From contig JAGKQI010000053.1 of assembly GCA_018806915.1 (NCBI GenBank), positions 248,001 through 312,000 of the forward strand: a DNA stretch of 64,000 bases. Direction: 5' to 3'. The position numbers were made by a program, and so were the translations under genes. A model generated the notes under the pieces. The model searched no databases, was not told the DNA's origin, and was given only the letters and a program-made list of their open reading frames with translations. Below are positions 2 to 57,479 of this stretch, in pieces; positions within the stretch are counted from its first letter, which is position 1; each line of letters opens with the position of its first letter. Source of the stretch: Phytophthora colocasiae. Its lineage: Eukaryota > Oomycota > Peronosporomycetes > Peronosporales > Peronosporaceae.

Positions 2-2479
2 CGAGGTTCGTCGGGTCCGGCTCCAGACCACGCGCGCCCGCTCTCATCCGATGAGACTGGGCCGATGCCGGGCAGTCCAGGGCGGGATCGCCTGATGCGC
101 GAACGCGATCAGCTAAGTCGTGAAGCCATGGAACTTCGGGCGCATGTCGACGCCATGGAGCTGTTCCGGGCGGACCAGCAGGGCGAGATCGCGCGTCTGG
201 AGCGCGAGATCGTTGATCTCGCGGAGGAAGCCTCTGATCTCGATGGGTTGCGTATGCAGGTTCACCAGCTCCGATCGGAACGCGACGAGTTCGCGCGGCG
301 TCTTAACTCTGCCCAGGCAGACCTAGATCGAGCTACAGAGGACCGGGATCGTTTGACTGAAGAGGTGGAACAAGCCACTAACGAGATCCAGGATCTCCAG
401 GCGGAAGCCCGGATCCATGCTTGCGATCTGGCCGAGGCGAAGCAAGACTCCGTCACCGCCAAGGCCAGCTACAACCGGATCTCGGCTGATCTTGCACATC
501 TCCAACTGGATTCCAGCCCCACGCCTTCGACCGGGGCTCCCACCCGATTGGCCCTGGCTGAGCGAGATCGAGCCTTGGCGGACTCCGCCCGAGCGACCGC
601 TTACCTGACCAGTATCGCTGCCGAACGTGACCTGGTCACCGATCAACTCGCCCACGCTAACTCTGAACTGAACCGAGTCACCTCGGAGCGGGATCGCCTA
701 CTTGTGGAACGAGACCAAGCGTTCGCAGATCGCGACAGAGCACAGACGGATCTCAGCACCGAGCGACAACGATCCACTCGTCTAGGTACGCATATAGTCT
801 AGATCCTCCACCTGACCATGATCACTCATATTCTGTTTGTCGTAGAGGATGATCTGATCGGTACCCATGCCGAAGTGCAGGAGTTAGAAGCGAGTCTTCA
901 AGCACTGCAGGAGAACTACGATCAGGCGGAAGATAACGTATGGGCAACTACCAACGTCCTGACCGAAATGGTGTCTCGGCTCCGCGCTGCTCAAGATGAA
1001 CGGGGGGTCAAACGTGCTCTCAGTCCGCCCCCATCTCCTGCTACATCGCCCCCGCACAAGGCCTCGCGGACGGAGCCTCCCCCGACCGATCACGACGCGG
1101 CCACACCTGACGTTCCCGCTGGAGACCAACCTGGTGGCCAGGCCCAGGCGACCGAGCTCGAAGAAAAGCACGAGGAAGACCCAGACCCCTTCGATCTGGG
1201 TCCTGAACCCGCGATCCCGACTGGGCCGGATGCGGAGGAAGCAGATCGCACCCAGGCCACCTCGCAAGTGACCGTGGAAGCACCTTCCCCGAAGAAGGGT
1301 GGCTCGGATCGGTCCAAACGCAAGCCCGATCCGGAGCATGACGATGACGAAGAGGATTCTGGCGCTGGATCCGACGACGCTCTTCGGGCTACGATACTCC
1401 GATCGCTGTCGTGGCACCGCCGGCATGGAAATCCTCCTCCAGCATCCGGTGATCAAGGGGGGTCTGCTCCTTCGACGCCTCCGGCGCAGCCGACACCTCC
1501 GGGCGGCAGTTCCCCACAGACTCCGATCACTTCTCCTCAGGGGTCCCCGAGGGGTAGTCCAGCTGGCGGGAGCCCTCCCGGTGGGGGATCTCCGGGTGGC
1601 GGCTCCCGGCGGCTCGCCGCGCCCCCAGCTGCACCCTCCTCTGTTCGCGATCAGCTCGTCTATTCCCGGGTATGCGAACGTCCGGCAGTTTGCGGCGGGT
1701 GATGTCTTCCCGTGGGATCCGATGTTCATCGGAACTTTGGCGATCGTCGGTATGATCCTCTCCACATTGTCCAAAAGGCTGCTGCTACCTCCCGGATTCC
1801 TCTACCCAGCGAGATCACCGGCTAATCGCCCTTCCCGAGCCGGGGTCGGTTGGTTGGCTAGCCTGATCACTGGGCCCAACGTGCAGGCCCTACTTGCTAC
1901 CCGACCTTGGGAGGTGCTCCGCAACCGACCGGCCCCCCTCACCTTCGATCTCGGTCTACATCGTCGTGCTGGAACCATGCTGGGGCAGATCGCGGATGCC
2001 TACGCCGCCTTCGAGTCAGATCACTTGCAGGCCTACTGGAATCGACCCATTATCTCGAGATCACGAAGGCGATGTATGAAGCTGATCCTGATCTCCATCG
2101 ATACTACCTCGAACGTCGGCAACGGCGTAGCCGCACCGGAGAACGTTGGCGGCTGCTATTGGGACGATTCCTGCCCATGATGCGTGCGATGTGGGCGGAC
2201 ATCGATCTTCTGCTCGATCCCTACTTCCTGCACTTCCCCACTATCCGTGATCGGGTATACTGGTATCCCGGATCGGCCTCTCGAATGGCCAACCTGGCCC
2301 AGCCGACTCTGAACCGACCGGAGCCCACCGATCTGATCTCCGCGTTGGCAGAATGCGACCAAGAGGACCTTTGGCGTAACCATTACCGCGATCGGCCGGC
2401 AGATCACCCGTCTCGGCAGATCCCACGGCTCGAAAACAAGTTTCACCCGCCGGCTCCTACACCTCCTGGGACTCCTTGA
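2..2479 (+). pseudogene. Antisense gene (aORF) of element A1, 5' end outside window
   Basis: Protein of unknown function encoded opposite to gag-pol in the 3' part of element A1. The frame is already open at the left edge; by alignment with A2 the start lies about 100 bases outside. Order of parts: a long charged coiled coil with many ERDR/ERDQ heptads (to about 1000), an acidic and proline/serine-rich disordered stretch (about 1010-1620), then a conserved C-terminal domain (about 1630-2460) with the motif LITG-NVQALLA and a W/R-rich tail. Two breaks: an in-frame TAG at 800-802, with the frame open on both sides, and loss of one G at 2038-2039, after which the reading continues in another frame to 2479. 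A frame change is also visible near 1620. The same TAG and G loss are present in A2. No signal peptide or clear membrane anchor is seen. Function unknown. Confidence 0.75.
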
Positions 2480-11108: not shown

Positions 11109-11129
11109 ATGATCCGTGATCTTGTTGCG

Positions 11130-12488
11130 TGTAGTGTTCACCTTGTGTACCCGTCGGTAGGCGGGTTACGCTCTTCCAGGTAACTTCTGAAGATGTCTTG
11201 TGACGAGAAGAATGTCTTGGGTGACGCAGGGGTGAGGAGATAGCGTGGGAATACTTCACTCTACCTCGGAGGAGTTGATCCGGGTCGTAGGCGAGTTCTC
11301 GAGCCTTGATCCGGTCGCCTGATCTTCGATCCAGGTCTTCCAAAGGTCCAATGTTGGGGATCCGGTCCCTTCCTTTACGATGCTTGCCGCTTCCTATAGC
11401 GGGTGTCTTGATGGGTTGAGAGTCGACGAGATCGTCAGGCCAAGCAGCCAATTCCTTCCGATCCGTAGTTCGCACGTAAAGGATAGATCACTAGATAGGG
11501 TAAAACTGGCCAATGTATTATCCAGAATTAACCTCTATGCTAGATCTCTTCTCCTTACCTTCTTGATGCTGGTGGGCCAATGTAATTCCCGGTTCCAGTC
11601 TTGGATGAAGGCACTTGTGAGGTCCAGAGCAAATTCGATTCTGTTTATGGTTATTCCTATGTCTACTAGTCCCATCCTCATCCGCTATCCTACGATTACC
11701 TGACATCCGGCTACACAGCTGCCCCTCCGATCTTCGATCTCGATCTCACCTAACCCCTGATCGCGATCTCGATCTACCGATCTACCGATCTGTCGATCTG
11801 CCGATCTGTCGATCAGTCGATCTGTCGATATGCTAATCTGCTGATCTGTCGATCTGTCGATCTGTCGATCTGTCGATCTGTCGATCTGTCGATCTGTCGA
11901 TCTGTCGATCTGTCGATCAGTCGATCTGTCGATCTGCTGATCAGCCGATCTCGATCAACCATCTCAATAATCGATCTTGGTCCACCGTCTTGAACAATGA
12001 TCTCGATCAGCAACCTTCATACTTGATCTCGCGTGCCTGTGTCGTCGACATTCCAGGTCTTGATCTTCCTGGACTTGACCACCGTTCCCCATGCGACCAA
12101 CGCTGCCATCATGTCCCCTCGGCAGCATCTCACAGTTATGTTGTCACCGGCCCACCATACATCGCACCGGTCCCGATCCTCTGCTGCCTTGATCTCCTAC
12201 TCATGCGATCTCAGGCAAGGCGCCCTTTTCTCCTCCGACCCTGAGCCGCTACGCGGGACCGTACGGCGGGGTTCTCCAACCACTTAGTCTCACTCGACCA
12301 AGACGCCATCCATCATCGCTGGCGAGATCGAGACGAACATCGATCTGGATCCATTCGTCAGCCATCGTTCGCGCAATCTGGGGTCATCAACTGACATCTT
12401 GCTTCGCCAGAGGCCCCTGTCGCTTGATCCGACTCTCTCTGGGCCTGACGTTGCCTTTTCTCGGATTTCTTATTCGTGCTTCACCACA
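11130..12488 (-). repeat. Family A LTR shared by A1 (5' LTR) and A2 (3' LTR)
   Basis: Boundaries are set by comparison with the LTRs at 23915-25185, 44822-46137 and 50209-51637. On the minus strand it starts TGTGGTGAAG and ends ACTACA, giving the TGT...ACA ends expected of an LTR. It lies between the gag leader of A1 and the aORF of A2, so it serves both tandem elements. It is 1359 bases long; the excess over the 1271-base copy at 23915 comes mainly from the internal GATC minisatellite. Confidence 0.8.
11756..11960. repeat. 8-base GATCTGTC minisatellite in LTR
   Basis: About two dozen tandem units of GATCTGTC and variants (GATCAGTC, GATCTGCT). The equivalent tract is shorter in the LTR at 23915 (24546-24652) and interrupted in A3 (45355-45510), so unit number varies between copies. 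Confidence 0.9.
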
Positions 12489-12614
12489 TCCGCCCCCAGC
12501 CTGCAAGTTGGTCCGTCTCGGTCCACTTCAGGTCTCATTCTCCAATCTTCAGCCCAAGGCACAAGTCACCCCGACAACACTTCGACCACCATCAACTGAT
12601 CCCTTCCAGTCTCC

Positions 12615-15196
12615 ATGAGTCAGCAAGGAAGTGATCCTGGGAGCGATTATCTGCCTACACCTCCCGATTCCCCAAGATCTCCTGACGGTCCGCCATCTCC
12701 CCACTCCGACATCTCGCGAGGTTCGTCGGGTCCGGCTCCAGACCACGCGCGCCCGCTCTCATCCGATGAGACTGGGCCGATGCCGGGCAGTCCAGGGCGG
12801 GATCGCCTGATGCGCGAACGCGATCAGCTAAGTCGTGAAGCCATGGAACTTCGGGCGCATGTCGACGCCATGGAGCGGTTCCGGGCGGACCAGCAGGGCG
12901 AGATCGCGCGTCTGGAGCGCGAGATCGCTGATCTCGCGGAGGAAGCCTCTGATCTCGATGGTTTGCGTATGCAGGTTCACCAGCTCCGATCGGAACGCGA
13001 CGAGTTCGCGCGGCGTCTCAACTCTGCCCAGGCAGACCTAGATCGAGCTACAGAGGACCGGGATCGTTTGACTGAAGAGGTGGAACAAGCCACTAACGAG
13101 ATCCAGGATCTCCAGGCGGAAGCCCGGATCCATGCTTGCGATCTGGCCGAGGCGAAGCAAGACTCCGTCACCGCCAAGGCCAGCTACAACCGGATCTCGG
13201 CTGATCTTGCACATCTCCAACTGGATTCCAGCCCCACGCCTTCGACCGGGGCTCCCACCCGATTGGCCCTGGCTGAGCGAGATCGAGCCTTGGCGGACTC
13301 CGCCCGAGCGACCGCTTACCTGACCAGTATCGCTGCCGAACGTGACCTGGTCACCGATCAACTCGCCCACGCTAACTCCGAGCTGAACCGAGTCACTTCG
13401 GAGCGGGATCGCCTACTCGTGGAACGAGACCAAGCGTTCGCAGATCGCGACAGAGCACAGACGGATCTCAGCACCGAGCGACAGCGATCCACTCGTCTAG
13501 GTACGCATATAGTCTAGATCCCCCTCCACCTGACCATGATCACTCATATTCTGTTTGTCGTAGAGGATGATCTGATCGGTACCCATGCCGAAGTGCAGGA
13601 GTTAGAAGCGAGTCTTCAAGCACTGCAGGAGAACTACGATCAGGCGGAAGATAACGTATGGGCAACTACCAACGTCCTGACCGAAATGGTGTCTCGGCTC
13701 CGCGCTGCTCAAGATGAACGGGGGGTCAAACGTGCTCTCAGTCCGCCCCCATCTCCTGCTACATCGCCCCCGCACAAGGCCTCGCGGACGGAGCCTCCCC
13801 CGACCGATCACGACGCGGCCACACCTGACGTTCCCGCTGGAGACCAACCTGGTGGCCAGGCCCAGGCGACCGAGCTCGAAGAAAAGCACGAGGAAGACCC
13901 AGACCCCTTCGATTTGGGTCCTGAACCCGCGATCCCGACTGGGCCGGATGCGGAGGAAGCAGATCGCACCCAGGCCACCTCGCAAGTGACCGTGGAAGCA
14001 CCTTCCCCGAAGAAGGGTGGCTCGGATCGGTCCAAACGCAAGCCCGATCCGGAGCATGACGATGACGAAGAGGATTCTGGCGCTGGATCCGACGACGCTC
14101 TTCGGGCTACGATACTCCGATCGCTGTCGTGGCACCGCCGGCATGGAAATCCTCCTCCAGCATCCGGTGATCAAGGGGGGTCTGCTCCTTCGACGCCTCC
14201 GGCGCAGCCGACACCTCCGGGCGGCAGTTCCCCACAGACTCCGATCACTTCTCCTCAGGGGTCCCCGAGGGGTAGTCCAGCTGGCGGGAGCCCTCCCGGT
14301 GGGGGATCTCCGGGTGGCGGCTCTCGGCGGCTCGCCGCGCCCCAGCTGCACCCTCCTCTGTTCGCGATCAGCTCGTCTATTCCCGGGTATGCGAACGTCC
14401 GGCAGTTTGCGGCGGGTGATGTCTTCCCGTGGGATCCGATGTTCATCGGAACTTTGGCGATCGTCGGTATGATCCTCTCCATATTGTCCAAAAGGCTGCT
14501 GCTACCTCCCGGATTCCTCTACCCAGCGAGATCACCGGCTAATCGCCCTTCCCGAGCCGGGGTCGGTTGGTTGGCTAGCCTGATCACTGGGCCCAACGTG
14601 CAGGCCCTACTTGCTACCCGACCTTGGGAGGTGCTCCGCAACCGACCGGCCCCCCTCACCTTCGATCTCGGTCTACATCGTCGTGCTGGAACCATGCTGG
14701 GGCAGATCGCGGATGCCTACGCCGCCTTCGAGTCAGATCACTTGCAGGCCTACTGGAATCGACCCATTATCTCGAGATCACGAAGGCGATGTATGAAGCT
14801 GATCCTGATCTCCATCGATACTACCTCGAACGTCGGCAACGGCGTAGCCGCACCGGAGAACGTTGGCGGCTGCTATTGGGACGATTCCTGCCCATGATGC
14901 GTGCGATGTGGGCGGACATCGATCTTCTGCTCGATCCCTACTTCCTGCACTTCCCCACTATCCGTGATCGGGTATACTGGTATCCCGGATCGGCCTCTCG
15001 AATGGCCAACCTGGCCCAGCCGACTCTGAACCGACCGGAGCCCACCGATCTGATCTCCGCGTTGGCAGAATGCGACCAAGAGGACCTTTGGCGTAACCAT
15101 TACCGCGATCGGCCGGCAGATCACCCGTCTCGGCAGATCCCACGGCTCGAAAACAAGTTTAACCCGCCGGCTCCTACACCTCCTGGGACTCCTTGA
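12615..15196 (+). pseudogene. Antisense gene (aORF) of element A2
   Basis: Best-preserved aORF. The ATG at 12615 is 126 bases from the LTR edge. N-terminus is Ser/Pro-rich (MSQQGSDPGSDYLP), then a coiled coil (about residues 55-330) with MERFRADQQGEIARL and ERDR/ERDQ repeats, an acidic proline-rich linker, and the conserved C-terminal domain (PWDPMFIGTLAIVGMIL, LLLPPGFLYP, SLITGPNVQALLA, PLTFDLGLH, YLEITKAMYEADPDLHRYY, DLLLDPYFLHFP, VYWYPGSASRMANL). The frame is open apart from TAG at 13515-13517 and loss of one G at 14755-14756; with those two exceptions it would encode about 860 residues. Antisense to gag-pol. It contains no RT, integrase, zinc knuckle or clear membrane segment; function unknown. 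Confidence 0.8.
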
Positions 15197-15570: not shown

Positions 15571-16495
15571 CTACACCTCTTCGTGCGACTGCATCACGCC
15601 AAACCGATTTCGGTTAGCATGATCACGTAGGAACGCGCTCAGTATGGCCCCACAGTTAAGATCAGCTTCGTCAACCCAAGTTGGTTCGTCATAACCGACC
15701 CAGTGCACCAGGAATTCACGATAGATCCGGCCGTAGCGAGTCCGTTTCCCACTTCGCATGTCCGAGATCCGTTCGACCTCGTACTCATCGGCATCCAGAT
15801 CTGGGACCCAACTGTCCTCCGGAAGGAGGATCTCATCGAAATCGAGCCGATCTGCTTCATCCACCGTCAACTCGATCCGCGGTCGATCCGGAAAATTCCG
15901 CACTAGCTTTAGCTTAGAAACATGGACCACTGGGAAGATATGATAATCAGATCCCGCGATCTCCAGCTTGATCGTGAATTCGTTGAGCTTCTCTGCAACA
16001 CGGAACGGGCCGTGCCAAAGGTGAGCGAGTTTACGCGCGTATCCTTCCTTCACACGATCTAGATACAGCCAAACCCGTGATCCAGCTTCGATCTGATGCG
16101 GATCGACATCCTCATTATGCCGATCGGCTCGATCTGCAATCGCCTCTCGTAGTCTAGCATTGACCTGCTCTCGCGACTGCTGGTAGTATCTCTGAACCCG
16201 ATATCTCCACCGTCTTGGATCGCGATCGTGGCGTCTGGTCGATCCGATCGGGATCGTTGCTTCCAACGTCGATCTCGGATCCCATCCATGTACCAGGTAG
16301 TGAGGGGTATCTCCCCGAACCCGATCGTGAGCCGTGTTAATAGCGAACGTCAGTCTCTCCGCGTATTCATCCCAGTCCTTGAACATACATCTTGATCGCC
16401 CTAGTCGCCGTTTGCACCATCCGTTCCGCAGTCCCATTGGCTTGTGGCCGGTAGGCCATCGTCGCCCGTTGTCGCTGCCCCAGGATCTTATTGAA
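15571..16495 (-). pseudogene. A2 integrase C-terminal half and chromodomain
   Basis: Same domain content as in A1: integrase glutamate motif NGTAERMV, integrase C-terminal domain, then the chromodomain (YEVERI ... HWVGYDEPTWVDEADL). The frame runs from about 16437 to 15571 but is broken near 16380 by a 14-base deletion relative to A1 (in the stretch coding DLDQKDWDE). Separated from the first half of integrase by the insertion at 16496-16810. Confidence 0.85.
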
Positions 16496-16810
16496 TTGCT
16501 GTAGAAAGTTAAGCAGCCCCCACCTCGGGCAGTGTTCGGGTGGGTGACGTATAGTATACGTATACCTCCCGTATAGTCCCGAGGTGTTGCGCTGTTTGAC
16601 GATCTGTGGTAGTTCTGGCTGGGCCATTAGACACTTGGACCGGGAGGGGTCGGAGCGACGCCACGGCAGATACCGTGCCCCGAGAAATCCTTGAAGTTAT
16701 TGGAAGGTAACCGTACCCTGTCACCATAGTGATACGCACGTTCTCCAACCCTGGAGAACACGCGGCACCTAAGACATCGCCAGGTGGGGAGTTTGGTTTG
16801 GGTCAACTAA
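16496..16810. mobile_element. SINE-like 315-base insertion in A2 integrase
   Basis: Same length, site and flanking 17-base direct repeat (16479-16495 and 16811-16827) as the insertion in A1, with only a few substitutions. Because site and duplication are identical, the insertion predates the split of A1 and A2. Confidence 0.65.
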
Positions 16811-18117
16811 CCCAGGATCTTATTGAACGATCGGAAGAAGTCGGACATGAAGCCCGGTTCTCGATCGTGCCTGATCATCTCGCTAGCACCAAATCTGCGG
16901 AACACGCATTCTTCATAAGATTCCGCGACGGTCTGGGCCGATCGGGAGGAACTGGCCTTCGCGATCACATATCCCGTGAACAGATCTACCCAGATCAGTA
17001 GCTCGGTGTTGCCTTTGTTAGATCTGGGCAGAGAGGGTATGTGATCCATCGCTATGATCTGGAATGGGTACGTCGCTTGTAGATTCCCCGGCGACTCGCC
17101 CCGGATCGTGGGCCTCCCCTTTCCAGTCTCACAGTCTACACACTCGCCTACGTATCGCTGCACGCTCCGATATAATCCCCTCCAGTGGAAATGATCTCGG
17201 ATTCGCTGATAAGTGCGTCCGATCCCCTGATGTCCTCCTTCCAGAGTCGTATGATAGTGGTGGAGGACATCCTGCTGTAGCGTTTCTGGAACTACAAGTC
17301 TCATCAGGCGATCGCGATCACCACTTGATCTCGGCCCTGGTGGGCAGTAAAACAGCAGATCTTGTTCATCTACCTCGTACTCGGAGGCGATCTTGGCGTA
17401 GGATCCAGATTCGGCTCGAGTAAGATCCGCGATCTGCCCAGCCAGGTACTTCTTTAGTCCGGCGATCCAGACCTCTTCGTCCTGGGCTCGCCTGATCCGA
17501 TCCACCCGCATCTCCCGGATCAGTTCTTCTTGCAGGACGGCGGCATCAGGTCGCGCTCGGGCTGCACGCGTGGCTACTGCCGACACTTGCACAGTTCGAT
17601 CTTCAACTCGAGGGGTCAACACCTCATCAAGCCGATTTAGGGTGATCAGATCGCACCGATCTGCCTCATCGTGGATCTCGATCCCGCTTCCTCGCTGCAG
17701 CGCGGCACTTGCCAAGCTATCTGCGCTCCCGTTCCAGTCTCTCTTCACATGGACCAGCTCATGATCTCCCCAATTCCGCAAGTGATCTAGCACCTTCTGT
17801 TTCAGTAACGTCAATCCTGGTGCCTTACAGTCGATCTCGCCCCGGACTTGTCGGATCACCAGGTTCGAATCGCCACAAACGACCAAACGGCGGCGTTCTA
17901 ACTGTGCGATCATGCCAAGACCTAGCAAGAGTCCACGGTATTCCGCTTCATTGACAGTAAGGCTTTCAGCATAATCCGATCTAGCCTTGATCGCTTTCCA
18001 CTCTGGTAAACTCCACACGATCGCGCTGAAAGCGCCTCCTCCTCGTTTCACGCGTGCCGATCCGTCGAAACTTATAACCCACAACTCCTCATCTGGGTCT
18101 ACGGTGGGGATCGGCAT
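16811..18117 (-). pseudogene. A2 second RNase H and integrase N-terminal half
   Basis: A continuous frame of about 430 residues. The second RNase H is intact at the motif level: aspartate in SFDGSARVKRGGG, glutamate in NEAEYRG, aspartate in CGDSNLV, aspartate in NGSADSLA. Then come the integrase HHCC zinc region and the catalytic aspartates in AMDHIPSL and RHDREPGF. It ends prematurely in the SINE-like insertion. The second RNase H is distinct from the one next to RT and resembles the cellular/archaeal-like type reported in oomycete Chronos elements and plant Tat elements. Confidence 0.85.
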
Positions 18118-18294
18118 CTGGATCCGACGTTTTGGCTCCTTTCGTGGCGCGATCGCGATCAGGGCTTCGTCGATCTCCGATCTAGGCGTTATGTTAGCTG
18201 CGATCGCCCCCAGTATCTCATCCTCTCCCTTCGTACACTTCGTGATCTCGAGTGTCCACGGGGACAGAAGAGCAGACCATTGTCCCAGACGTCC

Positions 18295-18609
18295 TTAGAG
18301 GCCGGCAGATTTGAACAGCCAGGCAAGCGTTGAGTGTCGGGTTAGGACCTTGATCCGACGTCCCACCAACAAGGTGTAGTGTAGATCCAAGATCCGAAGT
18401 AGAGCCAACACCTCCTTTTCGGCAACATTATAATTCAGCTCGTTGGTCTTCAAGGTTCGGCTGGCAAACGCGACCGGGTGGTAGATCTGGTCGTGTTCCT
18501 GCATCAGTGCGGCGGAAATCGCCCAGTCACTAGCATACACAATCACCACGGGTAATTTCGCCGTGTCGAAGTGACGGAGGATCGGGGTCGACGCGATCTT
18601 GGCTTTCAA
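18295..18609 (-). pseudogene. A2 first RNase H
   Basis: Classical Ty3/gypsy RNase H following RT: VYASDWAISAALMQ, AFASRTLKTNELNYNVAEKE, LTRHSTLAWLF. It ends at a TAA that replaces a glutamine codon of A4; A1 has the same stop. It is out of frame with RT because of small indels in a C-rich stretch near 18690-18740. About 180 bases between 18117 and 18295 are the connector to the second RNase H. Confidence 0.8.
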
Positions 18610-20099
18610 GGCTGTAAACGCTCTATATGCTCTACCCCACCTCTCGCCGCCAGTTTTTTGGGCCAGATTGGCTTCGATCTCGCTTGAACAGGGGGAGGCA
18701 TCGCCCCCAAGTCGGGATCGGGTACACTATCCCCTTTTTGAGTCGAGGTGTCTGGTGATCCACCCTGATTCGACTTAAGCGCAACGCGATCTCGAGTGAT
18801 CGGGTCCGTGTTATCCATGATCCTTCGTAGATCTGGTCGCTTCTTCAGTTCTGCGAACTCCACCTCACGTAGTTCGTACAGGACCGATGCATATATCGCA
18901 TAATCCTCGATGAACCGACTATAGTAATTCAAACTTCCAAGGAACGATTGCATAGATCGGAGTGATCCAGGGAATGGTAGATCCGTCAGAGACTTCAGGT
19001 CTTTCGGGTTTGCCTCCAATCCATCGATCGACACTTTGTGTCCGAGATATTCCACCTTATCCATGCCCCAGAAGCTCTTTGCCACACTGATCGAGAGATT
19101 CCACTTATCACAGGCCTCCAATAGGTCTTCCACCCGATCGCACATCTGATCCCATGATCCAGCCGTGATCAAGATATCGTCGATGTATGATCTCCGTCCT
19201 AGCACCGACGGGCGACCGGGATCTTCCGGGATCCCTGATTCGAACACATCCGCAGAGCCTTCCACATCTCCGGACTGGGAGATCTTCAGAAATCCATATA
19301 GGGCATTGTCCACAAGGCGTTGATAGATCTGAGGGGCGTTCTTCAGCCCGAACGGCATGCGATTCCACTCTAAAAGGCCAAATGGAGTGATGAAAGCCGA
19401 GATCGCGCGAGCTCGATCGGTCATTGATACGACCCAGAATCCACTCGCCATGTCTAATGAACAATACCACAGAACCTTGTCAAGATCTTCTAACAGGTCA
19501 TTGATCAGAGGCATCGGGTAGATCATCAGCCTTGTGAGACCGTTCACCAGCCGATAATCGATACATAGTCGGATGTCTACACCGTTCTTCTTGATGATCA
19601 CCACGATCGGAGATGCCCATGGCGATGTCGATGGCCGAATGATCTTGGCAGCTAGGAGTCCTTTGATAAGATCCGATACTTTCTCGCGAAACTGTGGCGC
19701 CACCTTTCGGACTCGTTGTGCGATCGGCTTTGCATCACCCACGTCGATATCGCATATAACACCCTTGGCCGCTGGAGGAAGTGCATTTCCCTTTCCGATC
19801 AGGAGATGTCGCTTCTTCCAAATAATTTGTCGAAGTTTCTCGATCTCCTCCGGGGTAGCCGATCCCGGATTCCCTACTTGCAGATCTTCAATCCTGACTT
19901 CTTCAGTGGTGGAGATCTGGATCTCTGGTACTACTGCGAGATTATCGGCTAGATCTTCGGCCGAAAAATCGCCACTTTCGTGTAAGTGGGTCTGATCAGC
20001 GTTCTCGATCCCTTCAGGAGATGCCGGATCCGGTTCATCCGTTGATTGATCACGCAGCCTATCGTCCTTGGCTGTCAAGATCGGGGTGTCTTTAACCAT
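18606..20099 (-). pseudogene. A2 reverse transcriptase
   Basis: A single frame of about 495 residues covering the end of the protease linker, the complete RT and the start of the RT-RNase H connector. Motifs as in A1: SLDMASGFW, MPFGLKNAP, SYIDDILI, LGHKVSIDG, FLGSLNYYSRF. The RT itself looks uninterrupted, making it the best RT of the two tandem copies. It is detached from the protease by a 2-base deletion near 20140 that A1 also has. Confidence 0.88.
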
Positions 20100-20121
20100 G
20101 GGGACGGCATCGGCGTCGGAT

Positions 20122-21476
20122 TCATGTTTGATCTCGATTAAAATCTGGTTTTTCTGTTTTTACCTCGATCTCTTCTTCGCATGTCTGATCTGTCCGATCT
20201 GGGGCCTGATCTGGCAAGCTCTCATTCGTCTCAGTCTCACCGCCCCCTGCTTCGCCACTCGGGGTCTTGTCGGAACTGATCGTAATCGGTGTGGTATCCA
20301 TGGGATCCGGTTGGGGATCGATGAATGCGACCTTGACTTCGACCGTATCGGTTGGTGATCGAGGTTCTAATGTCGATATTGGCGCAGGATCAGGATCGGT
20401 CCTGGTTGCCCCACCTCGGCGGAGTATGGATCGCGGCGTAACGTAGGTCGGCCGTTCGACCGACGGTAAGGGGATCTCTACGGATTCCTGAAGTTCTGGT
20501 CTTGCGTCCACAGTCGCTTCTAGAGCTAGGTTCTGCCACTCCATGTAGCGCCGGGACCCGACCGACACAAACCCGGGGAATCGAGGCACTTTTTCCTGAT
20601 CGAGTACCATTCCAACATGTAATCGGTGATCCAATCGTAAAATCTTCTCGCTCAAATTCGTGATCACTAAATACCGAGTTCGGCCGGGTCCATTTACCAC
20701 GGTAGGTACCCATCGGTCGCCTCTGGTCACCCATAATTTCTCCGTCGCCGATAATTTCACTCTCGATGCGGTCTCTTCAGATCCCCCAACTGGGATATGC
20801 AGATCTTCCTCCAATTTTACCGATCTTACCTTCTCCCCGTATAATCTCTTGCGACCACTAAGTGGGATCCCCACTTCATTAGGTAAGCACATCGATCCCT
20901 TCGCAAGATCCATCCGGACCCCAGCCGGGATCATGAAATCCATACCCAGGATCGCATCTTGCCCGGATAGATCCCCGATCCAAATATCGAAAAAGTAGAC
21001 CAAGTATCCCGCAAGCGTGATCTTGATCCTCGTTCTTCCCTCGGTGGTGTACACATTATCACCGATCCCAACACACTCCTGTCTCTGACTAGTGTCAAAG
21101 TGGCACCCAACCTTACGAGCAAAGGTGGTATCCAAGATGGATACCTCGGCGCCAGTGTCCAGGAGCAAGATCGCTCTTTCGTGATTGATCTTGCCTGAGA
21201 TCTTGGCTTGGCGGAACCATTTTCCGGGTGCGTGGTATTTCCAATACCCCCTGGATTCTCCTTCCTTGAGATCCAGAGCCACTTCCGCACCAGATCGAGA
21301 GAACTCATCGATCCGGGGAAGACTCGCGATCTTAGCAGTATACGAATGCAACTTACATGTATTACCGCGCAGATCCGAATTCTCCCTATCTTGATCTCTC
21401 GATTTCTTGTTCACATATGCATAGATGCAGTACTCAGAACGCTCGGCTCGTACCGGTTTCCAAACCGGCGAGCGTC
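20122..21476 (-). pseudogene. A2 protease and linker
   Basis: Aspartic protease with active site LLLDTGAEVSIL and a downstream AILGMDFMIPAG segment, entered by -1 frameshifting from gag. The linker toward RT contains PSVERPTYVTPRSILRRGG and one GETETN unit. It ends prematurely after KPDF because two bases present in A3 and A4 are missing. Confidence 0.83.
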
Positions 21477-21486
21477 CTAGTTTAAC
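21441..21486 (-). promoter_or_regulatory. -1 ribosomal frameshift signal, A2
   Basis: GTTAAAC heptamer (minus strand, 21480-21486), gag TAG at 21477-21479, then the nested hairpin (outer stem ACGCTCG/CGAGCGT, inner CCGGTTTGGAAACCGG). Identical to the other three copies. Confidence 0.8.
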
Positions 21487-23717
21487 ATCTTTTCCACCTT
21501 CTCGGGGAACAATCCGGCATGTCGGGTCGGGTCGTACCACTTGCGGATCTGGTTGTAGAATTCTTCCATGGGGCATTCTCCAGCTTCATGGATCTCCCCA
21601 CAACCACGGCAGGTATACAGACAGCGATCCGTTGGGTGACCCCTCTTCCCGCACTTATCACAGGTTAGACGTCTCCAGCAGTCTATATCCGTATGCTTCC
21701 GCGATCCACAGTGTGAACAGCGACCTCGATCATGATCTGATGTACCCCTGCGATCCGTGATCCGGCCTCGATCTTGCGCGTTCGTGTGCGATCGCGACTG
21801 ATCCTGTTGGTGGGGAACGCCCCCAGTACCGATCTGCTTGTCTTCCGACGCGGCAAGATATATCCTCCGGAGATCGCCTTCAGAATCGGATCCGTCCGAT
21901 CCGGATATTTCCTCTGATTCCGAGCTCGGATCTTGGGTTTGGATCGCCCGTACCACCGCTCTGGTGGGTGCTGCCGGGGCACTGGCCGGTGCCTTTTGTC
22001 TGTACTTCGATCCGAACGCAGATTTACGCTGTCTGCTTTTCGCCCGTTCTCGGGCACGAAGTACCTCCTCCAGTTCATCGACGTCGCTCAGTCGGAGTAG
22101 GGTCAGCCGATCAGCTAACTCCGGATCTCCCAATGTCTCGATGTAGTGGTCTACATGTTCCCGGCGGGCCTTAGGGCTCCCATCCTTGATCTTCAGCCTA
22201 GCCCGTAAAGCCGCCACGTTGAGCCGGTAGAGATAATCGAGAGGCGTCTCTTCTGATCGCTTGCGAGCGTGATAGTATTGCCACGCGACCGACATACCCA
22301 ACCCACAATACTGGGTCTGGAAACTGTCCAACAGATCTGCCCACTTGGTTTTCGTCGTTCGACTGAGCTGCCTGTACCAGTTCTTTGCCGGTCCCACCAT
22401 CAGATCTGCAAACGTGAGGCATTTCTCTTCTTCCGTAGCCTGATCGCGCTGAAATGCTGACTTGACTTTACTGATCCAGGCCCGAGCGCGATCTTCATCC
22501 AGATCTTTACCCGCAAAATCTTTCAGATCCGAGATCGCTGAGATCCGGACCCGCTGGATCATCGACGATCCTCCTTGACCGATCGCCGCGGATGCGATCG
22601 CTGCTCGGCTCGACATCTGTCCACCGGAACTTGGTATGCCCATATCGTCCGGATCGTATTCCCATGCATCCGGATCCGAGGCCGTAACGGACTCCATTTC
22701 AACATCCAACTCCCCTTTGATCGGCGATCGGGGTGTCGCGAGATTCCGTTCCTTTAAGAAACGATCCATCGCCATTTGGAAGTAGTCGTCCAACTTGTTG
22801 CTCGATCCAGTGGAATTAGTCGTCGGCGCAGTCTGGTCTGTCCGGATCCGGCGATTTTCTTGCTGATCAGGTGTCTTAGCCTCCAGTTGCGTGGTCACCG
22901 ATCGTGTATCTTGTTTCTTCATACGCGATTTCAAGAATTTGGCACCGGAGGGGCCCAGCGACATGCGTTGTAGCCTTCTCGGGCTGTCGGAGTCTGGTTC
23001 CGAAGTCGCTGACGCGTAGCATGACGATCCAGTCTGATAGCCTAGATCGGGCGTCAGTGGGCGTTCGCCGACCAAGACTTTGAGAGAGTTGAATAGATCA
23101 TGGGTCGCAGATTGAATCGCTTCCAGTTCCAGATCAAATAGAGAGTTTGGGTCGAATTCTCCAGCCACTAAACCAGCCTCTTGGAGCAGATCAAGTAGAA
23201 TCTTCACCGCGTTCAGGCGGTCCGAGCTAGTCCGGGGCTTCGACACCGGGCCGGTGAGGTTACCGATCTGGCGGACTTGTATGATAGTAAGAACGGGATC
23301 GTTAAGCAAGGTCTCGCTTAGCATCTTCCTGTAGTAGGCCTGCTCGATCGCGTCCTTGGTGATCGTCGATCCTGAGTTGATCACATCTTCTGGCTCTGAG
23401 TCTGGAGCTTTCAATTTCGTCCGAGTGCTCTTGATCTTCTTTTTCTTGGTCGATCTTCAGGCAACAGTGGACTTGGTGAGCAGGTTAGGTTTCAGCTTTG
23501 CTGATTCCTTATCGCTCGTGTGCGGATCTCGATTCTCATCGAGATCCGCGGTGGCCCTCGAAGGGGCCTTGGGAGGAATTCGAGGTTTTTCTTCAAGATC
23601 TGGATTGCGATCCAGGTCTGCCTCGTGCCTGTCAGTAGAGATCCTCCCAGAACTCTGCTGATCTGTGGATCTTTCTGTTTTCATCGGTGCCTCCGTCGAT
23701 CCAACCTTCGTAGGCAC
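21477..23717 (-). pseudogene. A2 gag
   Basis: Gag with Ser/Lys-rich N-terminus, capsid domain and three CCHC-type knuckles, ending at the frameshift heptamer. One nonsense change near 23456 (TGA in place of the serine codon in TVASRSTKKKK of A3) separates the first ~85 residues from the rest; the remaining frame of 645 residues is open. The frame toward the 5' end uses no ATG before MKTERSTD, as in A3. Confidence 0.85.
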
Positions 23718-23914
23718 TTCTTCCCCTTGTTCTTCTTTTATCTTGACATCTTCTTGGGACTCACGGTGCTATCCGAAGTCACCAGAAGATCCGGGCACGC
23801 GCACCATTGTGGTGGAGCGGATCTGGCCAAAATCTGGTTGAGGCCGATCGCGATCGCCACTTGCGCCCAGACACCGACTAACGGAGGTCCCCGATGATCC
23901 GTGATCTTGTTGCG

Positions 23915-25185
23915 TGTAGTGTTCACCTTGTGTACCCGTCGGTAGGCGGGTTACGCTCTTCCAGGTGACTTCTGAAGATGTCTTGGGACGAGAAGAATGT
24001 CTTGGGTGACGCAGGGGTGAGGAGATAGCGTGGGAATACTTCACTCTACCTCGGAGGGGTTGATCCGGGTCGTAGGCGAGTTCTCGAGCCTTGATCCGGT
24101 CGCCTGATCTACGATCCAGGTCTTCCAAAGGTCCAATGTTGGGGATCCGGTCCCTTCCTTTACGATGCTTGCCGCTTCCTATAGCGGGTGTCTTGATGGG
24201 TTGAGAGTCGACGAGATCGTCAGGCCAAGCAGCCAATTCCTTCCAATCCGTAGTTCGCACGTAAAGGATAGATCACTAGATAGGGTAAAACTGGCCAATG
24301 TATTATCCAGAATTAACCTCTATGCTAGATCTCTTCTCCTTACCTTCTTGATGCTGGTGGGCCAATGTAATTCCCGGTTCCAGTCTTGGATGAAGGCACT
24401 TGTGAGGTCCAGAGCAAATTCGATTCTGTTTATGGTTATTCCTATGTCTACTAGTCCCATCCTCATCCGCTATCCTACGATTACCTGACATCCGGCTACA
24501 CAGCTGCCCCTCCGATCTTCGATCTCGATCTCACCTAACCCCTGATCGCGATCTCGATCTACCGATCTACCGATCTGTCGATCTGCCGATCTGTCGATCT
24601 GTCGATCTGCTGATCTGCTGATCTGTCGATCTGTCGATCAGCCGATCTCGATCAACCATCTCGATCATCGATCTTGGTCCACCGTCTTGAACAATGATCT
24701 CGATCAGCAACCTTCATACTTGATCTCGCGTGCCTGTGTCGTCGACATTCCAGGTCTTGATCTTCCTGGACTTGACCACCGCTCCCCATGCGACCAACGT
24801 TGCCATCATGTCCCCTCGGCAGCATCTCACGGTTATGTTGTCACCGGCCCACCATACATCGCACCGGTCCCGATCCTCTGCTGCCTTGATCTCCTACTCA
24901 TGCGATCTCAGGCAAGGCGCCCTTTTCTCCTCCGACCCTGAGCCGCTACGCGGGACCGTACGGCGGGGTTCTCCAACCACTTAGTCTCACTCGACCAAGA
25001 CGCCATCCATCATCGCTGGCGAGATCGAGACGAACATCGATCTGGATCCATTCGTCAGCCATCGTTCGCGCAATCTGGGGTCATCAACTGACATCTTGCT
25101 TCGCCAGAGGCCCCTGTCGCTTGATCCGACTCTCTCTGGGCCTGACGTTGCCTTTTCTCGGATTTCTTATTCGCGCTTCACCACA
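23915..25185 (-). repeat. 5' LTR of A2
   Basis: Family A LTR of 1271 bases, TGT...ACA ends on the minus strand, with a short GATCTGTC tract at 24546-24652. Its right edge abuts family B integrase sequence at 25186, so the A1/A2 pair was inserted into, or recombined with, the family B element. Confidence 0.8.
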
Positions 25186-44133: not shown

Positions 44134-44821
44134 ATGGATCGCTCTGCCGACGCAAATTCCTCCGCTTATACCACAGTGTTCTTCGGCCAGGATCGCTCCG
44201 CGAAGCTCCCTCCGATCTCGCTGCGGCTGCGACTCCAACGGTTCCGGATCTGGATCCGGTGTATGCTGTCGTTGCCTCCCTCCAGTCTCTTTCTGATGGA
44301 TACGCAGAGTTGCAGGCCAGCTACCAACAAGTACTCCATGATCTCACTGCAGCGCGGCGACACAACGAAAGAGCTCCATGGCCTGCTGCAGCCTCGCCTG
44401 AACCTTGCCCAGGCTTTCATCGACTTCGCGCAGCGTCGCTAGCGAAACAGAAGGAAGCGGAAGCGGTGCAAGACCTGGATCGCCTCAAGGATCGGTTGCG
44501 CGAACTCGACACTCTCAAGGTCCAGTATTCCGATATGGAAGCTTCTTCGGCAGAAGCTTACGCGGTCCTGCAAGGCTACGCTGCGGGGCTCGAACGCCGG
44601 ATTGCCGGGGAAGACATCTCCGTGGGGGATCCATCGGTGGTTCGATTGGCTCAAGATCTCAAGTATCAGCGTGAAAAATCTTCGGAGCTATTACAGTGTT
44701 CGACAGAGCTGGAGTCGAAGTTGCAGGAAGCGGAGGCCACGCGAGATGCGGCCCTGCTCGAACGAGATCGCGCCAGTGTCCAGCTCGCGGAGTCTGCCAT
44801 CCGCTGTGACCAGCAAGCACG
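44134..44821 (+). pseudogene. Antisense gene (aORF) fragment of variant family A element
   Basis: The ATG at 44134 (MDRSADANSSAYTT) is 99 bases from the LTR edge, the same spacing as in A2 and A4. After one frameshift near 44210 a coiled coil follows (YAVVASLQSLSDGYAELQ, LDRLKDRLRELDTLKVQYSD, ERDRASVQLAE). It is cut at 44821 by insertion of A3. Only the N-terminal coiled coil survives; sequence is far diverged from A1/A2 but position, strand and composition match. Confidence 0.65.
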
Positions 44822-50208: not shown

Positions 50209-51637
50209 TGTGGTGAAGCGGACGAAAAAAATTTCCCGGAGAGGCGATGTCAGCCACGAACCCGAATAGAGTCGGAACGAGCGACAGGGGGGACCTGTGA
50301 TCGCCAGATCTGGGTCGAATCAGACGAAGGTACGATGGGTCCCGCTGGGAACAGGCAACGGAGACACCGGCGAAGAAGCAGGTGGAGCGGTGTTCGTGGG
50401 TGATCCGAATCCTGCCGGAGGAAGAATGGGGAAATCAAGGATGTTCTTGCGCGATCAACGATGACGGGGCCCCAAGCGAGCATGATCAGCTTACCCTGGC
50501 GCCCCGAAGCCTCTAACAGCACGATCCAACCTTCCCGGGCGGCGACGAAGCGAGATCACGCAAGATCGCGCAATGATCCTCTCCCGTATAAGTACGAGAT
50601 CAGCTCCGGATCAAGGTCAACCCCAGGCGCGACGCAGACTCTTCTGGTGGCCTGATCCGGATTCTTTGAAGGATTACCAAGCGGGATCAGGCAGCGATCA
50701 AGCCCCGATTAAGTGCGAGATCAAGCTTCGGTTAGGTGCGAGATCAAGCTTCGGTTAGGTGCGAGATCAAGCTTCGGTTAAGTGCGAGACCAAGCTTCGG
50801 TTAAGTACGGAATCGGCTCAAGATCAGGGTTAGGGGAACCAAGCTAGGGATCAGCTCTGTAGCCAGTGTCATGTGATCGTAGGATAGTAAATCAGGATGG
50901 GATTAGTAGGCATAGGAATAACCATAAACAGACTCGAATTTACCTTCTAGTGCGCAAGTGGATTTCTTCAGGACCCAGGACAAGGGAAGAGGATAGCATA
51001 TTGGCCTCCCCTTAGTGTTCCAGCAAGTCACTTCGCCCACCTAGCTACAGCTAAGACCGGATCCCCGATTTGGCCGGCTTACCTTACGCTAGTGTGAGGA
51101 TCTCTCGATATCTCAACAACCCCAAGGGACTCGAATTTGCCCTGAACCACTCAAGTGTCTTCGCTACGCCTGGAACCGGGAACTACATTGGCCCTACAAG
51201 CGTCAGGAAGGTAAGGATACGTGACCTAGTATAGCGGTTAAGTCTGGATAATATATTGGCCAGCTTTGCCCTATCTAGTGAACTATCCTTTAAGTGCATA
51301 CATCGGATCGGAAGGAATTGGTTGTTTAGCCTAAGGATCCCGTCGAATCTCGCCCCCTCAAGACCCCCGCTATCGGAAGCGGAAAACAACGAAAGGAAGG
51401 GACTGAATCCCGAACATTGGACTATTGGAAGACCTGGATCAAGAACCAGGCACCCGGATCAAGGCTCGAGAACTCGCCTACGACCGGGATCAAGTACCTC
51501 GAGGTGGAGTGAAGAACTTCCACGCCGCCTCAAACCCCTGCGTCACCCAAGACCTTCTTCTCGTCCCAAGACATCTTCAGAAGTTACCTGGAAGAGCGTA
51601 ACCCGCCTACCGACGGGTACACAAGGTGAACACTACA
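50209..51637 (+). repeat. 5' LTR of A4
   Basis: A 1429-base LTR starting TGTGGTGAAG and ending ACTACA. The first 1078 bases can be compared with the 3' LTR at 62923-64000: about ten differences by eye (around 99% identity), so the insertion is recent. It contains three to four tandem copies of GTGCGAGATCAAGCTTCGGTTA (50710-50800) and a mosaic middle block (about 50920-51120) resembling the variant LTR at 43137. A TATA-like GTATAAGTA lies at about 50587. Confidence 0.85.
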
Positions 51638-54115: not shown

Positions 54116-55855
54116 TCTGAGTACTGCATCTATGCATATGTGAACAAGAAATCGAGAGATCAAGATAGGGAGAATTCGGATCTGCGCGGTAATACATGTA
54201 AGTTGCATTCGTATACTGCTAAGATCGCGAGTCTTCCCCGGATCGATGAGTTCTCTCGATCTGGTGCGGAAGTGGCTCTGGATCTCAAGGAAGGAGAATC
54301 CAGGGGGTATTGGAAATACCACGCACCCGGAAAATGGTTCCGCCAAGCCAAGATCTCAGGCAAGATCAATCACGAAAGAGCGATCTTGCTCCTGGACTAC
54401 TGGCGCCGAGGTATCCATCTTGGATACCACCTTTGTTCGTAAGGTTGGGTGCCACTTTGACACTAGTCAGAGACAGGAGTGTGTTGGGATCGGTGATAAT
54501 GTGTGCACCACCGAGGGAAGAACGAGGATCAAGATCACGCTTGCAGGATGCTTGGTCTACTTTTTCGATATTTGGATCGAGGGGATCTATCCGGGCAAGA
54601 TGCGATCCTGGGTATGGATTTCATGATCGGCTGGGGTCGGATGGATCTTGCGAAGGGATCGATGTGCTTACCTAATGAAGTGGGGATCCCACTTAGTGGT
54701 CGCAAAGAGATTATGCGGGAGAAGGTAAGATCGGTAAAATTGGAGGAAGATCTGCATATCCCAGTTGGGGGATCCGAAGAGGCCGCATCGAGAGTGAAAT
54801 TATCGGCGACGGAGAAATTGTGGGTGAACAGAGGCGACCAATGGGTACCCACCGTGGTAAATGGACCCGGCCGAACTCGGTACTTAGTGATCACGAATTT
54901 GAGCGAGAAGATTTTACGACTGGATCACAGATTACATGTCGGGATGGTACTTGATCAAGAAAAAGTTCCTCGCTACCCCGGGTTTGTGTCGGTCGGGTCC
55001 CGGCGTTACATGGAGTGGCAGAATCTAGCTCTAGAAGCGACAGTGGACGCAAGACCGGAACCTCAAGAAACCGTAGAGATCCCCTTACCGTCGGTCGAAC
55101 GGCCGACCTACGTTACGCCGCGATCTATACTCCGTCGAGGTGGGGCAATCAAGACCGATCCTGATCCTGCACCAATATCGACATTGGAACCGCGATCACC
55201 AACCGATACGGTCGAAGTCAAGGTCGCATTCATCGATCCCCAACCGGATCCCATGGATACCCCACCGATCACGATCAGTTCCGACAAGGCCCCGAGTGGC
55301 GAAGCTGGGGGCGGTGAGACTGAGACGAATGGTGAGACTGAGACGAATGGTGAGACTGAGACGAATGAGAGCTTGCCAGATCAGGCCCCAGGTCGGACAG
55401 ATCGGACATGTGAAGAGGAAATCGAGGTAAAAACAGAAAAACCAGATTTTCAAATCGAGATCCAACATGTATCCGACGCCGATGCCGTCCCCATGGTTAA
55501 AGACACCCCGATCTTGACAGCCAAGGACGATAGGCTGCGTGATCAATCAACGGATGAACCGGATCCGACATCTCCTGAAGGGATCGAGAACGCTGATCAG
55601 ACCCACTTACACGAAAGTGGCGATTTTTCGGCCGAAGATCTAGCCGATAATCTCGCAGTAGTACCGGAGATCCAGATTTCCACCACTGAAGAAGTCAGGA
55701 TCGAAGATCTGCAAGTAAAATCCGGGATCAGCTACCCCGGAGGAGATCGAGAAACTTCGACAGATTATTTGGAAGAAGCGACATCTCCTGATCGGAAAGG
55801 GAAACGCACTTCCTCCAGCGGCCAAGGGTGTTATATGCGATATCGACGTGGGTGA
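54075..55855 (+). pseudogene. A4 protease and linker
   Basis: The protease frame is open to 54442, then an extra T in the codons for the active site (near 54398) breaks LLLDTGAEVSIL after LLLD. Further indels near 54580-54710 shift it again. The linker has three GETETN units and continues in one frame to 55855, overlapping the RT frame by a few bases near VICDIDVGDAKP, so at least one more indel separates it from RT. Confidence 0.83.
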
Positions 55856-56954: not shown

Positions 56955-56981
56955 GGTAGGGCACACAGGGCGTTTACAGCC

Positions 56982-57310
56982 TTGAAAACCAAGATCGCGT
57001 CGACCCCGATCCTTCGTCACTTCGACATGACAAAGTTACCCGTGGTGATCGTGTATGCCAGTGACTGGGCGATTTCCGCCGCACTAATGCAGGAACACGA
57101 CCAGATCTACCACCCGGTCGCGTTTGCCAGCCAGACCTTGAAGACGAACGAGTTAAACTATAATGTTGCCGAAAGGAGGTGTTGGCTCTGCTTGGATCCT
57201 GGATCTACACTACACCCTGTTGGTGGGACGTCGGATCAAGGTCTAACCAGACACTCCACGCTTGCCTGGCTGTTCAGGTCTGCCGGCCTTCAAGGGCGTC
57301 TGGGACAATG
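56982..57310 (+). pseudogene. A4 first RNase H
   Basis: VYASDWAISAALMQ and ASQTLKTNELNYNVAE are intact. Then small indels near 57170-57235 scramble the segment that in A2 reads KEVLALLRILDLHYTLLVGRR, and the frame recovers at TRHSTLAWLF. The glutamine codon after SAGL is intact here, unlike A1/A2. Confidence 0.8.
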
Positions 57311-57479
57311 GTCTGCTCTCCTGTCCCCATGGACACTCGAGATCACGAAGTGTAAGAAGGAGAGGATGAGATACTGGGGGCGATCGCAGCTAATATAACG
57401 CCTAGATCGGAGATCGACGAAGCCCTGATCGCGATCGCGCCACAGAAGGAACCAAGGCGTAAGATCAGATGCCGATTCC

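What the first reader, a model, noticed from the sequence alone, without database searches (positions are those of the whole stretch)
12615..15196. Conserved antisense gene between pol and the 3' LTR in several Ty3/gypsy lineages
A large protein gene opposite to gag-pol lies between pol and the 3' LTR in A1, A2 and A4, and its start survives at 44134-44821. The proteins of A2 and A4 share order (coiled coil, acidic/proline linker, C-terminal domain) and motifs (LITG-NV, PLTFDL-LH, LLDP-FLH-P, W/RYPG) although the DNA has diverged widely. That pattern suggests selection for protein before decay. No family I know fits it. It could be an accessory or structural protein in the env position, but on the other strand.
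Basis: partly seen in the sequence, partly recalled or inferred. Interest (0 to 1): 0.9.

Follow-up and report, generated by a model that had tools for sequence, protein, structure and literature searches.

The report
Reverse-strand gene in Phytophthora retrotransposons
A family of jumping elements in an oomycete genome of the Phytophthora group carries a large, evolutionarily protected gene written backwards relative to its other genes; it encodes a coiled-coil protein with a helical domain for which no relative was found, and it travels as one exchangeable unit with the neighbouring control region.

Summary
The antisense gene is real. A1, A2 and A4 are damaged copies; copies with open frames exist in the same genome. 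Three families were found. F1 (A1/A2 type) needs a 63-nt GT-AG intron removed on the antisense strand; F2 (A4 type) and F3 (the 44134 remnant) are single frames of about 934 and 1038 aa. Median dN/dS is 0.15-0.19 in the C-terminal domain and 0.11-0.18 in the coiled coil, against a neutral expectation of 0.75 (the pol end: 0.03-0.04). The C-terminal domain is predicted with confidence as helical (pLDDT 91, pTM 0.87), without a recognised relative. Protein relatives were found only in 13 Phytophthora species and Nothophytophthora. The element has the architecture of oomycete Chronos elements (dual RNase H plus chromodomain). F1 and F2 share a nearly identical pol end (dN 0.006) but carry different antisense gene plus LTR U3, so gene and U3 move as one cassette. 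Antisense genes at this place are known in plant elements and fungal Boty, so the kind is known; the protein family, the intron, the oomycete host and the cassette exchange are new as far as my searches show. Most likely function: a nuclear, element-encoded regulator acting on its own U3 (inferred, untested).

The parts
12615..13500 (+). antisense gene (F1, copy A2), exon 1: Ser/Pro-rich N-terminus and coiled coil
   Evidence: median dN/dS 0.176 in 13 core copies open in exon 1; 30% identity to F2, E 1e-13 (coiled coils inflate such scores)
13501..13563 (+). 63-nt intron-like stretch of the antisense gene (GTACGC...CTGAC...TAG); the exon-1 frame meets a stop inside it in 28 of 28 fetched F1 copies
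13564..15196 (+). exon 2: end of coiled coil, acidic/Pro-rich linker, C-terminal domain; this copy changes frame in the last third
14357..15196 (+). C-terminal domain region (the corresponding part of F2 copy L044 was modelled: pLDDT 91.4, pTM 0.87)
12535..12551 (+). oomycete INR+FPR-like core promoter, 80 nt before the ATG; single best match in the window, both strands, to TCAYTYYNCAWTTT (13 of 14); on the 17-nt form it ties with two other places at 15 of 17
   Evidence: motif from PMC3599244; 24 of 27 F1 copies with a located start keep 15 or more of 17
11722..12488 (-). U3 side of the A2 3' LTR (edge TGTGGTGAAG at 12488, polypurine tract beside it); the U3/R limit is inferred from where A2-A4 similarity resumes
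15571..16437 (-). pol end: integrase C-terminus and chromodomain, convergent with the antisense gene
16807..18117 (-). pol: RNase H of RVT_3 type and integrase (H2C2, rve)
18606..20099 (-). pol: reverse transcriptase
20122..21576 (-). pol: aspartic protease
23808..25185 (-). 5' LTR (outer edge 25185) and leader of A2; against 11019-12493 there are 16 mismatches and 5 gap openings in 1475 columns
65..2479 (+). copy A1 of the antisense gene (exon 1 to about 785, intron, exon 2 with the A2-type altered end and one more frame break); its first part lies before the window
60038..62819 (-). copy A4 of the antisense gene (F2), broken in several frames; INR-like TCACTTC at 62888
50209..51288 (+). A4 5' LTR (99.2% identical to the 3' LTR that starts at 62923, over the 1080 columns inside the window)
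55848..59685 (+). A4 pol: RT, native RNase H, RVT_3-type RNase H, integrase end, chromodomain
44134..44821 (+). start of a third antisense-gene family (F3), truncated by an F1-type LTR at 44822; its own 3' LTR edge is at 44034

Best explanation
Chronos-type Ty3/gypsy elements of a Phytophthora-group oomycete carry a separate antisense gene between pol and the 3' LTR. Shown by sequence: protein coding under purifying selection, an intron-like stretch in F1, three families, a promoter-like INR+FPR site between the LTR edge and the ATG in F1, and linkage of each of two gene families to its own U3. Inferred: transcription starts beside the polypurine tract, with the 3' LTR U3 as upstream region read backwards; the antisense mRNA is spliced (F1) and translated into a protein of about 850-1040 aa that oligomerises through its coiled coil, enters the nucleus, and uses the helical C-terminal domain to bind the element's DNA or RNA or a host chromatin factor. 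As an accessory regulator it acts on its own U3, and can act in trans for other copies. Because the genomic RNA is the sense strand, the antisense intron is not removed during copying and persists; and one template switch at the pol end swaps gene and U3 together, so regulator and target can stay matched. I put the gene's reality, selection and antisense placement at 0.97, and the regulator-on-own-U3 step at about 0.4.
For: Frame and selection (medians): F2 core, 14 copies, 0.187 (coiled-coil halves 0.150 and 0.110, linker 0.324, CTD 0.186); F1 core exon 2, 15 copies, 0.245 (linker 0.343, CTD 0.148); F1 exon 1, 13 copies, 0.176. Frame control: 0 stops only in the stated frame; other frames of F2 1.11-1.98 with 14-25 stops per copy and mirror frame 0.23 with 21 stops; other frames of F1 0.78-1.42 with 6-20 stops and mirror frame 0.39 with 17 stops (third positions coincide in the mirror frame). 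Neutral expectation 0.75. Placement: pol end and CTD on opposite strands in 63 of 64 loci. Promoter; YCAYTYY also at -69 (F2) and -28 (F3), 8.3% of 100-nt windows hold one by chance. Intron; F2 is contiguous over that place. Fold; F3 matches a profile of seven other CTDs with E 7e-42. Cassette: (27 of 28 F1 loci match the F1 U3, 1 matched neither; 17 of 17 F2 loci match the F2 U3). KR.RS-type basic cluster in F2 and many relatives. Plant analogues are nuclear or Smc-like (PMC7264820 section 7).
Against: No transcript, protein, localisation or binding data were available. The pol end is under much stronger constraint (median dN/dS 0.038 in 4 F1 and 0.033 in 13 F2 copies) than the antisense gene. 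L001 (which is A2), L002 and L003 share the same altered C-terminal frame, so elements with a damaged antisense gene seem to have been copied; A4 has a broken gene although its LTRs are 99.2% identical: the gene is not strictly needed in cis. Linkage of gene and U3 follows from one template switch without any functional match. The CTD has no recognised fold, so nucleic-acid binding is a guess. F1 lacks the KR.RS form of the basic cluster (it has KRALS), which weakens the nuclear step. The dN/dS copies were chosen for long open frames; with all 28 F1 copies, altered ends included, the exon-2 median was 0.37. Other species' proteins could not be placed in their elements with these tools.
Confidence: 0.5

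Rival explanations
1. Structural or pre-integration-complex protein: the coiled-coil protein joins the particle or the integration complex (nuclear import, targeting beside the chromodomain) and does not act on U3.
For: Coiled coil plus globular domain, with a basic cluster in F2, F3 and many relatives; antisense proteins of plant elements have been proposed to act like retroviral accessory proteins, nuclear import included (PMC7264820 section 7).
Against: The integrase-chromodomain end of F1 and F2 is nearly identical in protein (dN 0.006) while the antisense C-terminal domains are 52% identical; a particle component would be expected to co-vary with gag-pol rather than with U3. This is an inference.
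Confidence: 0.25
2. Self-limiting or immunity-type factor: the protein, or the antisense transcript, restrains copies of the same cassette type, and cassette diversity reflects escape from restraint or host silencing.
For: Antisense transcripts could form double-stranded RNA with the genomic RNA (discussed in PMC7264820, passage); cassettes have diverged strongly (CTD dS about 2.2) on a shared pol; copies with a shared damaged end exist (L001-L003).
Against: Purifying selection on amino acids shows that the protein matters, not RNA alone; no small-RNA data were at hand.
Confidence: 0.2
3. A captured host gene or passenger carried by a few copies.
For: None found; absence of a host paralogue away from pol was not searched for beyond the fetched loci.
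Against: 112 and 139 matches of two families in the genome (lower bounds, some copies give two rows), a third family, relatives in 13 Phytophthora species and Nothophytophthora, pol end beside it in 63 of 64 loci.
Confidence: 0.03
4. A chance open frame produced by composition or by a sense-strand constraint.
For: The elements are GATC-rich, and an opposite-strand open frame of about 300-345 aa exists in many copies.
Against: Frame test, codon-position pattern, a domain conserved across families and a neutral expectation of 0.75.
Confidence: 0.01

Closest known systems
Plant aORF-3R antisense genes (Grande gene23, RIRE2, Retand ORF4 with Transposase_28 PF04195, PvRetro13)
   Same: Antisense to gag-pol between pol and 3' LTR; present in most copies; some with Smc-like matches or nuclear location (PMC7264820, PMC11963269). 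Grande, RIRE2 and Retand belong to the Tat group, which has an additional RNase H (grouping recalled; Tat's RNase H in PMC10508981 passages).
   Different: No PF04195 match in our proteins; the word intron does not occur in PMC7264820 or PMC11963269; oomycete host; chromodomain in pol.
Boty antisense ORF (Botrytis, Sclerotinia)
   Different: Fungal host; sequence not compared here.
Chronos Ty3/gypsy elements of oomycetes (PMC5348765)
   Same: Dual RNase H plus chromodomain next to integrase; found there in Peronosporales and Pythiales.
   Different: The paper's main text holds neither 'antisense' nor 'additional ORF'; section 5 was read. An RT tree was not run here.
HBZ, the spliced antisense gene of HTLV-1 (recalled; the antisense promoter in the HTLV 3' LTR is in a passage of PMC7264820)
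   Same: Antisense, spliced, start near the 3' LTR, nuclear regulator.
   Different: Retroviral; no sequence comparison made; analogy only.

Membership tests
Antisense aORF between pol and 3' LTR (aORF-3R kind) | ORF between pol and 3' LTR, antisense to gag-pol | tested here: met
   63 of 64 loci have pol end and CTD on opposite strands, 1 had no pol match; LTR edges flank gene and gag-pol in A2 and A4
Antisense aORF between pol and 3' LTR (aORF-3R kind) | present in most copies and conserved | tested here: inconclusive
   conserved: dN/dS; many copies (lower bounds); the share of all pol copies that carry the gene was not counted
Retand/TRP28 antisense proteins | Transposase_28 domain PF04195 | tested here: not met
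   not listed for F2, F1 exon 2, F3 and five relatives (E limits 5, 0.5, 0.05); for the two exon-1 proteins only the best 25 of 70 and 64 coiled-coil-type matches were shown
Chronos Ty3/gypsy | native plus additional RNase H | tested here: met
   RT_RNaseH, RT_RNaseH_2 and RVT_3 in A4; RVT_3 in A2. That RVT_3 marks the archaeal/plant type is recalled
Chronos Ty3/gypsy | chromodomain after integrase | tested here: met
   PF00385 E 3e-07 and 4.4e-07
Chronos Ty3/gypsy | position in the Chronos clade of the RT tree | not tested
   no reference RT sequences were fetched
Env-like protein | signal peptide and membrane helix | tested here: inconclusive
   simple hydropathy of ten proteins gives no support; no dedicated predictor was run
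Known fold or Pfam family for the C-terminal domain | significant profile or structure match | tested here: inconclusive
   no Pfam match to the domain, PDB sequences none, Foldseek best E 3.5, 1.3 and 2.0; 10 of the 94 relatives carry precomputed Pfam domains whose positions I did not check
Ubiquitin-interacting motif in the linker | match to the Pfam UIM model | tested here: inconclusive
   recalled consensus in 34 of 95 proteins (loose; 4.5% per shuffled protein) or 12 of 95 (strict; 0.5%), but no Pfam match in ten peptides, some typed with hybrid ends

The most novel reading that the evidence does not exclude
The antisense gene and its U3 form a matched, exchangeable control cassette: the coiled-coil protein recognises its own U3 (perhaps through the family-specific tandem repeats there) and sets the element's activity; cassettes are swapped between elements with the same gag-pol by template switching, giving elements new regulatory types. 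Together with dual RNase H and chromodomain this would be a third feature that oomycete Chronos elements share by convergence with plant elements, through a protein fold not yet described.
Probability: 0.3. Interest if true: 0.87.

Novelty: new variant of a known kind. Interest (0 to 1): 0.72.

Why it matters
Antisense genes of LTR retrotransposons have been known for years without a known function. Here one has more than a hundred copies in one genome, three families, measurable selection, an intron that calls for an antisense spliced mRNA, and a confidently modelled domain that can be expressed and assayed. It suggests that a class of 'hypothetical', 'myosin heavy chain' or 'autophagy-related' proteins in Phytophthora gene sets are retrotransposon antisense products. 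The parallel with plant elements that also have an additional RNase H suggests a common selective pressure.

Full report
What is there. The window is G000:C91:248001-312000 of a 92.5-Mb genome in 105 contigs. Copy A2 of the antisense gene starts with ATG 12615 and ends with the stop at 15194-15196. Gag-pol is on the other strand: protease, reverse transcriptase, RVT_3-type RNase H with integrase, and a chromodomain in the frame that ends at 15571. The 3' LTR edge (TGTGGTGAAG, next to a polypurine tract) is at 12488 and the outer edge of the 5' LTR at 25185. The gene thus lies between pol and 3' LTR, convergent with pol, and its start is 127 nt from the LTR.

An intron. The first long frame ends in a stop and the second opens soon after. 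Between them lies a 63-nt GT-AG stretch (13501-13563) with a CTGAC branch-site-like motif. In 28 of 28 fetched F1 copies the exon-1 frame runs into a stop inside this stretch. Of these 28 stretches 22 are 63 nt long, five are 1 or 2 nt shorter, and one is 3 nt longer. F2 is contiguous over the same place. An antisense intron is not removed from the sense genomic RNA, which would explain how it survives copying; this is inference. An alternative, that exon 2 is translated on its own from the ATG inside the stretch, is not excluded by sequence, but selection acts on both exons.

Families. F1 (A1/A2): 112 matches of exon 2 in the genome (lower bound; some copies give two rows). F2 (A4): 139 matches of the C-terminal domain, 19 of which hold a stop by my count of the listing; the 16 copies L044-L059, fetched because of their long frames, have 931-977 aa from the family ATG. 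F3: an intact 1038-aa frame in L064; the window's 43900-44821 stretch is 78% identical to it in DNA. The C-terminal domains of the three families match at 35-52% identity, and the F3 domain matches the profile of seven others with E 7e-42.

Selection. On codon alignments of copies with the family C-terminus the median dN/dS is 0.187 for F2 core (14 copies) and 0.245 for F1 exon 2 core (15 copies); by region 0.150, 0.110, 0.324 and 0.186 for two coiled-coil parts, linker and C-terminal domain of F2, and 0.343 and 0.148 for linker and C-terminal domain of F1. Exon 1 gives 0.176 (13 core copies). From the cores I left out divergent copies: L040, L042 and L043 for F1 and L045, L055 and L060 for F2; with them the medians are 0.242 and 0.194 (pooled pN/pS 0.297 and 0.308). 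A first pass with all 28 F1 copies, altered ends included, gave 0.37. Control frames: in F2 the four non-mirror frames give 1.1-2.0 and the mirror frame 0.23 with 21 stops per copy; in F1 0.78-1.42 and 0.39 with 17 stops. The neutral expectation with the observed fourfold spectrum is 0.75. The ratio does not fall clearly with distance (terciles 0.243, 0.200, 0.195 in F2 and 0.287, 0.272, 0.312 in F1). The pol end is far more constrained: 0.038 in 4 F1 and 0.033 in 13 F2 copies. Copies were chosen for long frames, which biases against stops but not against amino-acid changes. Between F1 and F2 the antisense domain has dN 0.44 and dS about 2.2 (medians of 270 pairs, dS undefined in 10).

Promoter. 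The single best match on either strand of the window to TCAYTYYNCAWTTT (13 of 14) is at 12535, 80 nt before the ATG; on the 17-nt form it ties with two other places at 15 of 17. The motif joins the INR and FPR of oomycete core promoters (PMC3599244, passages); its INR part here, TCATTCT, is called there the most frequent form. Of 27 F1 copies with a located start, 24 keep 15 or more of 17, one 14 and two 13. F2 and F3 have an INR at -69 and -28; 8.3% of 100-nt windows have one by chance, so these two alone are weak.

Protein. The order is: short Ser/Pro-rich start, long coiled coil, a basic cluster (KR.RS in F2 and many relatives, KRRRR in F3, KRALS in F1), an acidic and Pro/Ser/Gly-rich linker, then a domain of about 270-285 residues. 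A S[RL]S[EDWI] match lies in the linker window of 40 of 95 proteins, some clearly by chance (95 counted). The domain was modelled from F2 (pLDDT 91.4, pTM 0.87) and F3 (86.9, 0.84); both models are mostly helical with a similar run of helices, but they were not superposed. Foldseek found nothing below E 1.3. Pfam, PDB sequences and PHROGs gave nothing for the domain; the N-terminal part draws only generic coiled-coil models below their cut-offs. Residues E141, H144, R169, R170, D194, D196, D200, R254, R258 and H264 of the modelled piece are invariant in seven sequences, of which H144, R169, R170, D194, D196 and D200 stay at 90% or more in 53; F3 lacks the second arginine.

Distribution. Three searches of a 5.8-billion-protein collection gave 15, 22 and 94 hits, all in Phytophthora (sojae, infestans, citrophthora, palmivora, rubi, fragariae, fragariaefolia, cinnamomi, megakarya, cactorum, nicotianae, capsici, ramorum) or Nothophytophthora. 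The first scored only the 7989 candidates that shared most words, and the method needs shared five-residue words, so distant relatives may be missed. Names given are hypothetical, uncharacterised or unnamed protein, and in a few rows those of unrelated families; 10 of the 94 rows carry a precomputed Pfam domain whose place I did not check, and which may come from fused gene models.

Cassette exchange. A2 and A4 are 93.6% identical over 7.66 kb from the inner LTR and leader through most of gag-pol and 90% over the last 1.03 kb; similarity stops about 93 nt beyond the pol stop. Over antisense gene and U3 only three short blocks align (190, 153 and 128 nt at 67-71%), and similarity returns within the LTR. 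In the integrase-chromodomain end F1 and F2 differ by dN 0.006 and dS 0.30 (52 pairs), against dN 0.44 in the antisense domain. U3 follows the gene: 27 of 28 F1 loci match the F1 U3 (1 matched neither) and 17 of 17 F2 loci the F2 U3; the two U3 samples share only stretches of 23 and 18 nt. One template switch near the pol end yields this, because both new LTRs take U3 from the 3' end of the RNA (established retroviral logic, applied by inference). F3's U3 was not tested.

Reading. [quoted passage not shown] PMC11963269). The element fits oomycete Chronos by dual RNase H and chromodomain (PMC5348765 section 5). Plant Tat elements also have an additional RNase H (PMC10508981, passages); that Retand, Grande and RIRE2 belong to Tat is recalled. 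So the antisense gene may be a further convergent trait. The best mechanism I can offer is a nuclear regulator acting on its own U3; rivals are a particle or pre-integration-complex component and a self-limiting factor. Against a cis-essential role: A2 (L001), L002 and L003 share the same altered end, and A4 is damaged though its LTRs are 99.2% identical.

Noticed in passing
11019-25190 and 51837-62878: GATC is denser inside the elements (28.2 and 24.5 per kb) than at 25200-36000 (4.3 per kb) or 36000-44000 (11.6 per kb); a link to adenine methylation or codon use is untested.
   Followed up: partly
11769-11951; 50696-50806 and 63409-63518: LTRs carry family-specific tandem repeats: 8-bp TCGATCTG x23 in F1, 23-bp GATCAAGCTTCGGTTAAGTGCGA x4.8 in F2. 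Candidate binding sites.
   Followed up: partly
1-25185: A1 and A2 lie in tandem with a 12.7-kb period and seem to share one LTR.
   Followed up: partly
44822 and 50209: Nested insertions: an F1-type element begins at 44822 inside an F3 antisense gene, and A4 begins at 50209, apparently inside that element.
   Followed up: partly
linker of relatives such as P0006, P0033 and P0035: Acidic stretch followed by a Ser-Arg-Ser-Glu/Asp motif that resembles a ubiquitin-interacting motif (recalled consensus); Pfam UIM not matched.
   Followed up: partly
public records among P0003-P0126: Many Phytophthora proteins filed as hypothetical, or in a few rows as myosin heavy chain or autophagy-related, look like retrotransposon antisense products; their genomic places were not seen.
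   Followed up: partly
25203-30474: By eye, another retroelement with integrase- and RT-like frames and a 676-aa frame on the minus strand.
   Followed up: no
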